From contig NZ_AXVL01000023.1 of the NCBI RefSeq assembly GCF_000482505.1, positions 1 to 60,789 on the forward strand: a DNA stretch of 60,789 nt. Direction: 5' to 3'. The notes beneath the pieces were generated by a model. It did not search any database, was not told where the DNA came from, and saw nothing but the letters and a program-made list of their open reading frames with translations. This document shows positions 2,557 to 22,106 of this stretch, in pieces (the stretch's first letter is position 1; every line of letters begins with the position of its first letter). Source of the stretch: Leptotrichia trevisanii DSM 22070 (GTDB taxonomy: Bacteria; Fusobacteriota; Fusobacteriia; Fusobacteriales; Leptotrichiaceae). The position numbers and the translations under genes are program-made.

Positions 2557-3792
2557 TTAAATATTTTTTCCTAAAAAATATCCCGATGTCCAAGCCCATT
2601 GCAAGTTAAATCCTCCGCATTCACCGTAAACATCCAGTATTTCCCCAGCAAAATACAGATTTTTAACTTTTTTTGATTCCAAATTTTCCAAATTTATTTC
2701 GCTTAATGGAATTCCTCCAGCGGTAACTTGAGCTGCCTTAAAGCCATTTGTATCGATAATTTTTATTTTGTATTTTTTTAAAGTTGTACAGATTTTACGA
2801 ATTTCATTGTCTGTAAGTTCATTTATACTTTTTGACAACTTTTCTATTCCTGCCGTTTTTGTCAAAAATTGTCCAAGTTTCTTATTGACAACTCCATTAG
2901 AAAATTGTTCCATTGTAAAATCCTTTAATATTGTCCGACGTTTTTTCAAAATTTCAAAAATTTCATTATAAGTAAATTTTGGCATAAAGTCAATTTCAAA
3001 TTCCACATTTTTATAAATTGGAAAAACATATGAAATATTAAAAACCACATTTCCAGAAATCCCAAAATCTGTAAACAATAATTCTCCATCATAAGTGCAA
3101 ATTTTTATTTTCTCTCCACTTCCATTTTCTCCCAAAGCTGTAATTTCCACATCCAACTTAATTCCTTTTAATCCCTTTATTTTTTCTTTTTCTGCCTTCA
3201 GCTGCACAATAACAGGCGTTAATTTCGTAACTGTATGCCCAAAGCTCTTTGCAAGTTCATAGCCACTTCCATTTGAGCCAAGTTCAGGATATGACTTTCC
3301 ACCAGTTGCAAGCACTACCTTTTTGGCAATTATCTGCCTTTTATCTTCGGAAATTATCTTAAATTCAAACATTTCCTTCTCAATTTTTGTAACATAAAAG
3401 TTTGTAATTATCTCTATCCCAAGACTCTGTGCATAAAACCTAAGCCCATCCACAATTGAAGCCGCCTGTCCGCTAAGCGGATAAACTTTCCCACGATTTT
3501 CCTCATTGCAAATAATCCCAACTTCATCTTCAAAAAATCTCATCGCATCCTGTGAAGTAAAACTTTCCAAAATTTCTTCAATCGGCTGTTTCATCTTCTC
3601 AATCCCAAAATAGTTCCGATTTGAAGCATTCACATTTGTCAAATTACATCGCCCATTTCCAGTAGTCAGCACCTTTTTCAAAACTCTGTCCTTTCTCTCC
3701 AGAATGACAACATCTTTATTATTTTTCTTTGCAGTAATCGCTGTTAGAAAACCCGATGCACCGCCACCAATTATCGCTATTTCTTTTTTCAT
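2557..3792 (-). CDS. NAD(P)/FAD-dependent flavoprotein, BaiN/HI0933-like
   Basis: The 411-residue protein belongs to the HI0933/YhiN/BaiN flavoprotein family (COG2081). It has an N-terminal FAD site IAIIGGGASGFLTAI, the hallmark TTGNGRCNLTN at about residues 43-53, a middle ATGGKSYPELGSNGSGY motif and a C-terminal FAGEILDVYGECGGFNLQWAWTSG. Family members are flavin oxidoreductases. BaiN itself acts on bile-acid intermediates, but most homologues have no proven substrate, so that role should not be transferred here. A small RNA with its own terminator lies 165 bases upstream and separates this gene from the EEP gene. Confidence 0.8.
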   Translation of the reverse strand: MKKEIAIIGGGASGFLTAITAKKNNKDVVILERKDRVLKKVLTTGNGRCNLTNVNASNRNYFGIEKMKQPIEEILESFTSQDAMRFFEDEVGIICNEENRGKVYPLSGQAASIVDGLRFYAQSLGIEIITNFYVTKIEKEMFEFKIISEDKRQIIAKKVVLATGGKSYPELGSNGSGYELAKSFGHTVTKLTPVIVQLKAEKEKIKGLKGIKLDVEITALGENGSGEKIKICTYDGELLFTDFGISGNVVFNISYVFPIYKNVEFEIDFMPKFTYNEIFEILKKRRTILKDFTMEQFSNGVVNKKLGQFLTKTAGIEKLSKSINELTDNEIRKICTTLKKYKIKIIDTNGFKAAQVTAGGIPLSEINLENLESKKVKNLYFAGEILDVYGECGGFNLQWAWTSGYFLGKNI

Positions 3793-3954
3793 CCTGTAAT
3801 CCTGTTCTCCTAAATATTTATCATAAATTTCAAAACTATAATCAATCCACTTAAAAATTGGAGTAAAAACATGTAAAAAGCAATGGATAGCTTCTACTCC
3901 CGTTTTAAACTAGAATTGCTATATTATTAATTCCCCGTTCAAAAGCTTGTTTAT

Positions 3955-4031
3955 AAAACAAAAACGAGCCGTGTGCTCGTTTTTTTGTATGAAAGAAGTC
4001 TAAATGTAGAGATGGGGCGTCTCTATTAGAC
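3955..4031 (-). ncRNA. Candidate small RNA, two stem-loops, ~75 nt
   Basis: Downstream of a consensus promoter, the minus strand gives a first hairpin (outer arms 4026-4031/3998-4003, inner arms 4020-4024/4008-4012) whose loop reads CGCCCCA. A short A-rich linker follows, then a second hairpin ACGAGC-ACACG-GCTCGT (3980-3975 and 3969-3964) with the U-rich tail TTTTGTTTT. This is the layout of an independent small RNA ending at an intrinsic terminator. The C-rich loop could pair with GGGG-type ribosome sites, which occur in this window, but that is inference. It might instead be a terminated 5' leader of the flavoprotein gene that starts at 3792. Confidence 0.6.
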
Positions 4032-4036
4032 AGTTA

Positions 4037-4065
4037 TTTATATCACATATCGCATTATTTGTCAA
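4037..4065 (-). promoter_or_regulatory. Sigma70-type promoter of the candidate small RNA
   Basis: On the minus strand TTGACA (4060-4065) is followed after exactly 17 bases by TATAAA (4037-4042). This is a near-perfect vegetative promoter placing transcription start near 4029-4031, right at the first hairpin. Confidence 0.7.
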
Positions 4066-21831: not shown

Positions 21832-22106
21832 TAAAAAGTCATACATCAAATTCTCGAAAATATTCTACCATCCGTTTCTTAAGACAAAAGCTCAAAAATA
21901 GCTACCCCGTAAACCTAAAGAAACTAACTTAGTGCTGCTTCGTTCCCAACCTGACACATTTCGCTAACTCTCTACAATACAGGACTATTTTCTCAACACT
22001 TTTAAAAATAAGACGTTGACACTAAAATTTCCCTCAAATTTGACATCACCTCTACTAAAGCGGGTTGTAGATACAGGGCACCGCTAACTCCCCGGCTAGT
22101 ATGACT
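21832..22106 (-). ncRNA. ffs: Signal recognition particle RNA, long form with Alu domain
   Basis: This ~275-nt RNA scaffolds Ffh for cotranslational membrane targeting. The minus strand contains the SRP core GTCAGGTTGGGAACGAAGCAGC (split here as GTCAGGTTGGG and AACGAAGCAGC) near 21942-21965. The 5' Alu-type segment GGGGAGTTAGCGGTGCCCTG is followed by CAACCCGCT, closely matching the Bacillus scRNA 5' domain. The termini AGTCATAC (22106-22099) and GTATGACT (21844-21837) pair and are followed by TTTTTATTTTT, the intrinsic terminator. Length matches the Bacillus/Clostridium ~270-nt type, not the 4.5S type. Confidence 0.92.

What the first reader, a model, noticed from the sequence alone, without database searches (positions are those of the whole stretch)
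3955..4065. Free-standing ~75-nt small RNA with a C-rich loop
A consensus promoter (TTGACA-17-TATAAA), a hairpin with loop CGCCCCA, an A-rich linker and an intrinsic terminator lie in order on the minus strand between two flavoprotein/EEP genes. Several ribosome sites in this window are GGGG-rich (for example AAAGGGGG), so the loop could pair with mRNA starts, as CU-rich sRNA loops do in staphylococci. It might also be a terminated leader of the gene at 3792.
Basis: partly seen in the sequence, partly recalled or inferred. Interest (0 to 1): 0.75.

Follow-up and report, generated by a model that had tools for sequence, protein, structure and literature searches.

The report
Ultraconserved Leptotrichia small RNA, targets unknown
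A roughly 74-letter RNA gene with its own promoter and terminator is kept almost letter for letter in all 19 sampled genomes of Leptotrichia and its nearest genera, in several different chromosomal settings, so it is very probably a real regulatory small RNA that has not been described, although what it controls is still unknown.

Summary
On the minus strand, a TTGACA-17-TATAAA promoter with an extended -10 (TGA) precedes a hairpin with loop CGCCCCA, a linker and an intrinsic terminator; the predicted RNA is 4031->3958, 74 nt (z = -6.2). It is single-copy. The same RNA is in 19 of 33 family genomes (all 13 of the window's genus and four sister genera) and in none of 65 other Fusobacteriota; true hits score at least 100 bits, everything else below 30. 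Fourfold-degenerate sites of the neighbouring gene differ at 56-65% between genera, but the RNA differs by only 3-4 substitutions. The promoter is kept in 19/19, while the upstream gene, and in five genomes the downstream gene, differ. That excludes a general flavoprotein-leader function. There is no start codon and no Rfam match, and no genome of the family has a detectable Hfq. The best reading is a new clade-specific, Hfq-independent, constitutively transcribed sRNA, probably acting in trans by base pairing through its C-rich loop and/or invariant UC-rich linker. Target searches did not beat controls: GGGG ribosome sites are rare (about 5%), loop complements are not enriched, and candidate targets were not conserved or not better than permuted loops. 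Target and function are inferred, not shown.

The parts
4060..4065 (-). -35 hexamer TTGACA
   Evidence: identical in 19 of 19 genomes; sequence
4037..4045 (-). extended -10: TGA + TATAAA, 17 nt after the -35
   Evidence: spacer 17 and TG motif in 19/19 (two rows by eye), TATAA[A/C] in 18/19
3958..4031 (-). small RNA gene, predicted 74-nt transcript starting at G4031
   Evidence: fold z -6.2; CM hits at 100-108 bits in 19 genomes, next best below 30; start inferred from promoter spacing
3998..4031 (-). 5' hairpin: outer stem GUCUAA/UUAGAC, inner stem AGAGA/UCUCU, loop CGCCCCA (4019-4013), bulge (A)CAU; T4025-A4007 pairs only in part of the clade
   Evidence: 100% standard pairs in helices 1 and 2
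4013..4019 (-). C-rich loop CGCCCCA (UGCCCCA in three species), proposed seed
   Evidence: GCCCCA invariant in 19/19
3980..3997 (-). single-stranded linker UUCUUUCAUACAAAAAAA; UUCUUUCAUACAA invariant, A-run variable in length; second proposed seed or protein site
   Evidence: largely unpaired in the ensemble
3955..3979 (-). intrinsic terminator CGAGC-ACACG-GCUCG and U-tract
   Evidence: loop ACACG invariant in 18/19
2557..3792 (-). downstream gene, HI0933-like FAD-dependent oxidoreductase; not part of the RNA but its usual 3' neighbour
   Evidence: Pfam PF03486; immediately downstream in 14 of 19 carriers, elsewhere in 5

Best explanation
This is a stand-alone, monocistronic small RNA gene of the Leptotrichia clade. 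A strong, apparently constitutive sigma-70-type promoter makes a 74-nt RNA made of a 5' hairpin presenting a C-rich loop, an exposed UC-rich linker and an intrinsic terminator (shown as sequence and predicted structure; transcription itself is inferred). Most likely it acts in trans by short antisense pairing with mRNAs, nucleating at the GCCCCA loop and/or the UUCUUUCAU linker, which is complementary to AUGAAAGAA-type translation starts, and mainly represses translation, without Hfq (inferred). The invariant 3' strand of the hairpin and the linker suggest one continuous recognition surface shared by several targets, or a protein partner needed as well (inferred).
For: Promoter, hairpin and terminator in order, fold z -6.2. 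19 of 33 family genomes carry it at 100-108 bits, everything else is below 30 bits. 3-4 substitutions in 74 nt where fourfold sites differ at 56-65%. Promoter conserved in 19/19 with unconserved spacer and upstream sequence, so no conserved operator. Gene context changes while the RNA stays. No Rfam family reaches its gathering score. No Hfq detected in 33/33 genomes, with working positive controls. Precedent in the phylum: FoxI and FoxJ of Fusobacterium nucleatum repress fomA through a C-stretch, in FoxJ placed in a hairpin loop (PMC11005410). Variation in the hairpin stems sits in the 5' arm as A-U to G-U changes, while columns 16-48, loop through linker, have one variable column of 33.
Against: No target found: duplex energies over about 2000 translation starts do not exceed dinucleotide shuffles, loop complements are not enriched near starts, and the real loop ranks 15th of 42 permutations for its best conserved pair. 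The enrichment of linker complements at starts (TATGAAA 5.2x) is what common AUGAAA starts would give. No expression data were available. Near-total invariance including the terminator loop is more than pairing sRNAs usually show and may mean protein binding.
Confidence: 0.6

Rival explanations
1. Protein-binding RNA: the RNA binds or sequesters an RNA-binding protein, or works inside a ribonucleoprotein, rather than pairing with mRNAs.
For: Nearly every unpaired base, including the terminator loop ACACG and the linker, is invariant, and no pairing signal was found.
Against: No candidate protein was identified; the C-rich loop fits the phylum's known pairing sRNAs.
Confidence: 0.25
2. Terminated leader or attenuator of the downstream HI0933-like flavoprotein gene.
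For: It lies a short distance (about 70-260 nt from the terminator) upstream of that gene in the same direction in 14 of 19 carriers; a regulated read-through role there is not excluded.
Against: In G010, G012 and G014 the RNA is at another locus with a convergent gene downstream, and in G021 and G022 other sequence follows, yet the RNA is just as conserved; no antiterminator pairing exists.
Confidence: 0.07
3. CRISPR-linked RNA (a Leptotrichia array repeat contains a similar UAGACU and a CCC/GGGG stem).
For: Short resemblance of AUUUAGACU to the array repeat GATATAGACTACCC found in locus L281.
Against: The RNA has its own promoter and terminator, is single-copy, lies away from the array in G007, and shares only a short word with the repeat.
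Confidence: 0.02
4. No RNA function: a conserved terminator or DNA site only.
For: The terminator could also work in the other direction; in G010 and G012 a convergent gene ends beside it.
Against: Promoter and single-stranded linker are conserved too, in fixed order and spacing, in all contexts.
Confidence: 0.03
5. Small protein gene.
For: None.
Against: The window's transcript has no ATG or GTG, and TTG only in the terminal U-tract, and no ribosome site.
Confidence: 0.01

Closest known systems
FoxJ (Fusobacterium nucleatum, about 156 nt, sigma-E dependent)
   Same: Fusobacteriota sRNA with strong primary-sequence conservation; C-stretch in a hairpin loop acting as seed; F. nucleatum lacks Hfq and ProQ as stated there (PMC11005410).
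   Different: Half the length, no confident match of the model in other Fusobacteriota, sigma-70-type rather than sigma-E promoter, different locus (FoxJ lies upstream of ylmH), restricted to the Leptotrichia clade, targets unknown.
FoxI (Fusobacterium nucleatum, sigma-E dependent)
   Same: C-stretch used against fomA mRNA (PMC11005410).
   Different: C-stretch in a long linear stretch, not in a loop; sigma-E dependent; no homology seen.
Staphylococcal C-rich sRNAs (for example RsaE/RoxS), from general knowledge
   Same: C-rich unpaired motif in a low-G+C genome, pairing with G-rich ribosome sites.
   Different: No Rfam match; the G-rich ribosome-site signal is not found here.
Rfam STnc370 (RF02064) and csRNA (RF02379)
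   Same: Similar size, hairpin plus terminator; sub-threshold whole-model matches.
   Different: 27.9 and 18.0 bits against gathering scores of 54 and 57, E 0.033 and 2.6: chance level.

Membership tests
Intergenic bacterial sRNA gene (class) | own promoter and intrinsic terminator, noncoding, outside genes | tested here: met
   no start codon in the transcript
Intergenic bacterial sRNA gene (class) | conserved independently of neighbouring genes | tested here: met
Intergenic bacterial sRNA gene (class) | discrete transcript detected | not testable with these tools
   no RNA-seq data available
Trans-acting base-pairing sRNA | conserved complementarity to target mRNAs above control | tested here: inconclusive
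   no signal in a partial sample of two genomes (308 ortholog pairs); sucrose-6-phosphate hydrolase site seen in g6/g8 only
Hfq-dependent sRNA | Hfq encoded in the genome | tested here: not met
   PF17209 absent in 33/33 family genomes, five control genomes positive
FoxI/FoxJ sRNAs | sequence homology | tested here: not met
   model R1 finds no confident match in 65 other Fusobacteriota genomes; direct comparison with the FoxI/FoxJ sequences not made
FoxI/FoxJ sRNAs | sigma-E type promoter | tested here: not met
   TTGACA-17-TATAAA with TG, sigma-70 type
FoxI/FoxJ sRNAs | C-stretch seed | tested here: inconclusive
   C-rich loop present and invariant, use as seed unproven
Cis-acting leader/riboswitch of the flavoprotein gene | constant linkage to the regulated gene | tested here: not met
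   broken in 5 of 19 genomes
Cis-acting leader/riboswitch of the flavoprotein gene | antiterminator alternative to the terminator | tested here: not met
   no upstream pairing to the terminator arm above 5%
Any Rfam 15 family | score at or above gathering threshold | tested here: not met

The most novel reading that the evidence does not exclude
A Leptotrichia-clade core regulator, constitutively made and frozen in sequence from loop to linker, that works on many mRNAs at once without Hfq, using one continuous loop-to-linker surface that can pair with translation starts such as AUGAAAGAA, or that needs an undescribed RNA-binding partner which fixes the whole sequence.
Probability: 0.25. Interest if true: 0.72.

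Novelty: new member of a known kind. Interest (0 to 1): 0.52.

Why it matters
sRNA biology in the Fusobacteriota is known almost only from F. nucleatum. This RNA would be a core sRNA of another oral genus, Leptotrichia, with a defined 74-nt gene, promoter and terminator ready to probe, in bacteria without a detectable Hfq. Its near-frozen sequence makes it a good handle for finding how sRNAs work, and which protein helps them, in this phylum.

Tried and rejected
Leader of the flavoprotein gene: rejected as the general role. Small protein: no start codon. Rfam families: none. Phage or mobile origin: exact-core scan of IMG/VR found nothing; single copy. Exact-core scan of 84,980 species found only four Leptotrichiaceae records, with near-window genomes possibly left out. 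Target search by duplex energy in 2,006 predicted starts of two genomes and 308 ortholog pairs: no excess over 24 shuffles; the conserved best loop site (GH1 6-phospho-beta-glucosidase codons 8-10, sum -30.9) is ordinary among 42 permuted loops (rank 15 or 19) and is explained by a conserved Trp-Gly-Gly motif. Pattern TGGGGYG-ATG: sucrose-6-phosphate hydrolase starts carry it in G017, G020 and G021, but G011 and G003 have AAGGTGG/GAGGTGG instead. Recurrent TGGGGCGRATTATTATG proved to be inside a coding repeat. 11-13-nt linker complements exist but not at matching genes. Ancestral RNA upstream of the flavoprotein gene in non-carriers: upstream regions printed, no similar element noticed by eye. 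CRISPR link: array repeat in L281 shares only a short word. Covariation: none measurable, stems too invariant. Literature: no paper found describing it; a survey of novel ncRNAs that included L. buccalis counts 10 sRNA candidates overall, but which ones is not in its main text and its supplement could not be read, so prior listing is not excluded.

Full report
What is there. On the minus strand the window reads TTGACA (4065-4060), 17 bases, TATAAA (4042-4037) preceded by TGA, then a hairpin, a linker and a terminator. The predicted start is G4031, six bases after the -10 and the first base of the stem, and the U-tract ends near 3958, giving a 74-nt RNA. Its fold is far better than shuffles (z -6.2, 0 of 200), and partition-function analysis shows two independent hairpins, an exposed loop CGCCCCA and an unpaired linker UUCUUUCAUAC, with nothing upstream pairing to the terminator. 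The promoter scanner missed it only because it requires T as the last base of the -10. The transcript has no ATG or GTG. It is single-copy in the genome.

How far it is conserved. A DNA search of the family found strong matches in 19 of 33 genomes, all 13 of the window's genus and four other genera. A covariance model built from the 19 gave 100-108 bits for these and below 30 bits for everything else in 98 Fusobacteriota genomes. The 19 sequences have 95% mean column identity; columns 16-48, from the loop to the end of the linker, hold one variable column. Between genera the fourfold-degenerate sites of the neighbouring flavoprotein gene differ at 56-65%, while the RNA shows 3-4 substitutions. 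Named carriers include Leptotrichia hongkongensis JMUB5056 and Leptotrichia sp. oral taxon 879. No exact core is in IMG/VR and no Rfam family fits.

Structure and promoter. All 21 pairs are kept in every sequence, but changes are only A-U to G-U on one side, so there is no compensatory evidence; the stems are simply too invariant. The changes inside the 5' hairpin stems are in its 5' arm, where the U partner allows them, so the 3' arm appears constrained by more than pairing. The -35, the 17-nt spacing and the TG of the -10 are present in 19/19, whereas the spacer sequence and the region upstream vary (two genomes with a second TTGACA in the spacer were read by eye). This looks like a strong constitutive promoter without a conserved operator, an inference.

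Free-standing, not a leader. But in G010, G012 and G014 the RNA sits elsewhere, between a TetR-like gene and a convergent gene (queA-like, or a transposase-like gene in G014), in G021 an ABC-transporter substrate-binding gene follows, and in G022 an unrelated small ORF (gene names from reading the sequences). Upstream genes differ widely within the genus. The RNA is equally conserved in all, and it lacks an antiterminator. Read-through regulation in the 14 remains possible but is not what conserves the RNA.

How it may work. Hfq is not detected in any of the 33 genomes, with positive controls working. In F. nucleatum, FoxI and FoxJ repress fomA through a cytosine stretch, in FoxJ within a hairpin loop (PMC11005410). 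By analogy the GCCCCA loop, and perhaps the UC-rich linker, should pair with mRNAs. I tested this in about 2 Mb of two relatives. Duplex energies at 2,006 predicted starts do not exceed shuffles; 7-mers complementary to the loop are not enriched at starts, and linker complements are enriched only as any AUGAAA-containing word would be. The best conserved loop site, in a GH1 gene, is no better than permuted loops give. A striking TGGGGTGA ribosome site of the sucrose-6-phosphate hydrolase gene occurs in three genomes of two genera but not in G011 or G003. GGGG ribosome sites are about 5%. So the mode of action is inferred, and protein binding is a serious rival given the invariance of even the terminator loop.

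Verdict. A real, undescribed (as far as the library shows), clade-specific and exceptionally conserved sRNA gene; mechanism probably trans-acting and Hfq-independent; target unknown.

Noticed in passing
window 21839-22104 (-): Bacterial large signal recognition particle RNA (RF01854, 131 bits), the only Rfam hit of the window at the gathering threshold.
   Followed up: no
L281 about 13073 onward (G007:C1 about 793 kb): CRISPR array with repeat GATATAGACTACCCTAATATCGAAGGGGA..., resembling type VI (Cas13a) repeats of Leptotrichia as remembered.
   Followed up: partly
L312-L323 near 1500: A conserved coding repeat GGCTTATTATGG(A/G)CTTGGGGCG(G/A)ATTATTATGGTGCTGGG, two copies 1130 bases apart in G007, G008 and G010; in one frame it reads as a Tyr-Tyr-Gly rich protein segment.
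   Followed up: partly
window 3877-3918 (-): In the window's genome and G013 a further inverted repeat AGCAAT...ATTGCT lies between the sRNA terminator and the flavoprotein gene; the other carriers aligned do not show it.
   Followed up: no
L146 (G011:C1 1217775-1219805): In G011 the sRNA gene is divergent from the sucrose-6-phosphate hydrolase gene, and in several other Leptotrichia genomes that gene lies within about 8-15 kb of the sRNA.
   Followed up: partly
L134 (G010) and L136 (G014), transposase-like ORF (415 aa) beside the sRNA: IS605-type OrfB-like genes sit next to the relocated sRNA in G010 and G014, possibly related to its move; not tested.
   Followed up: no
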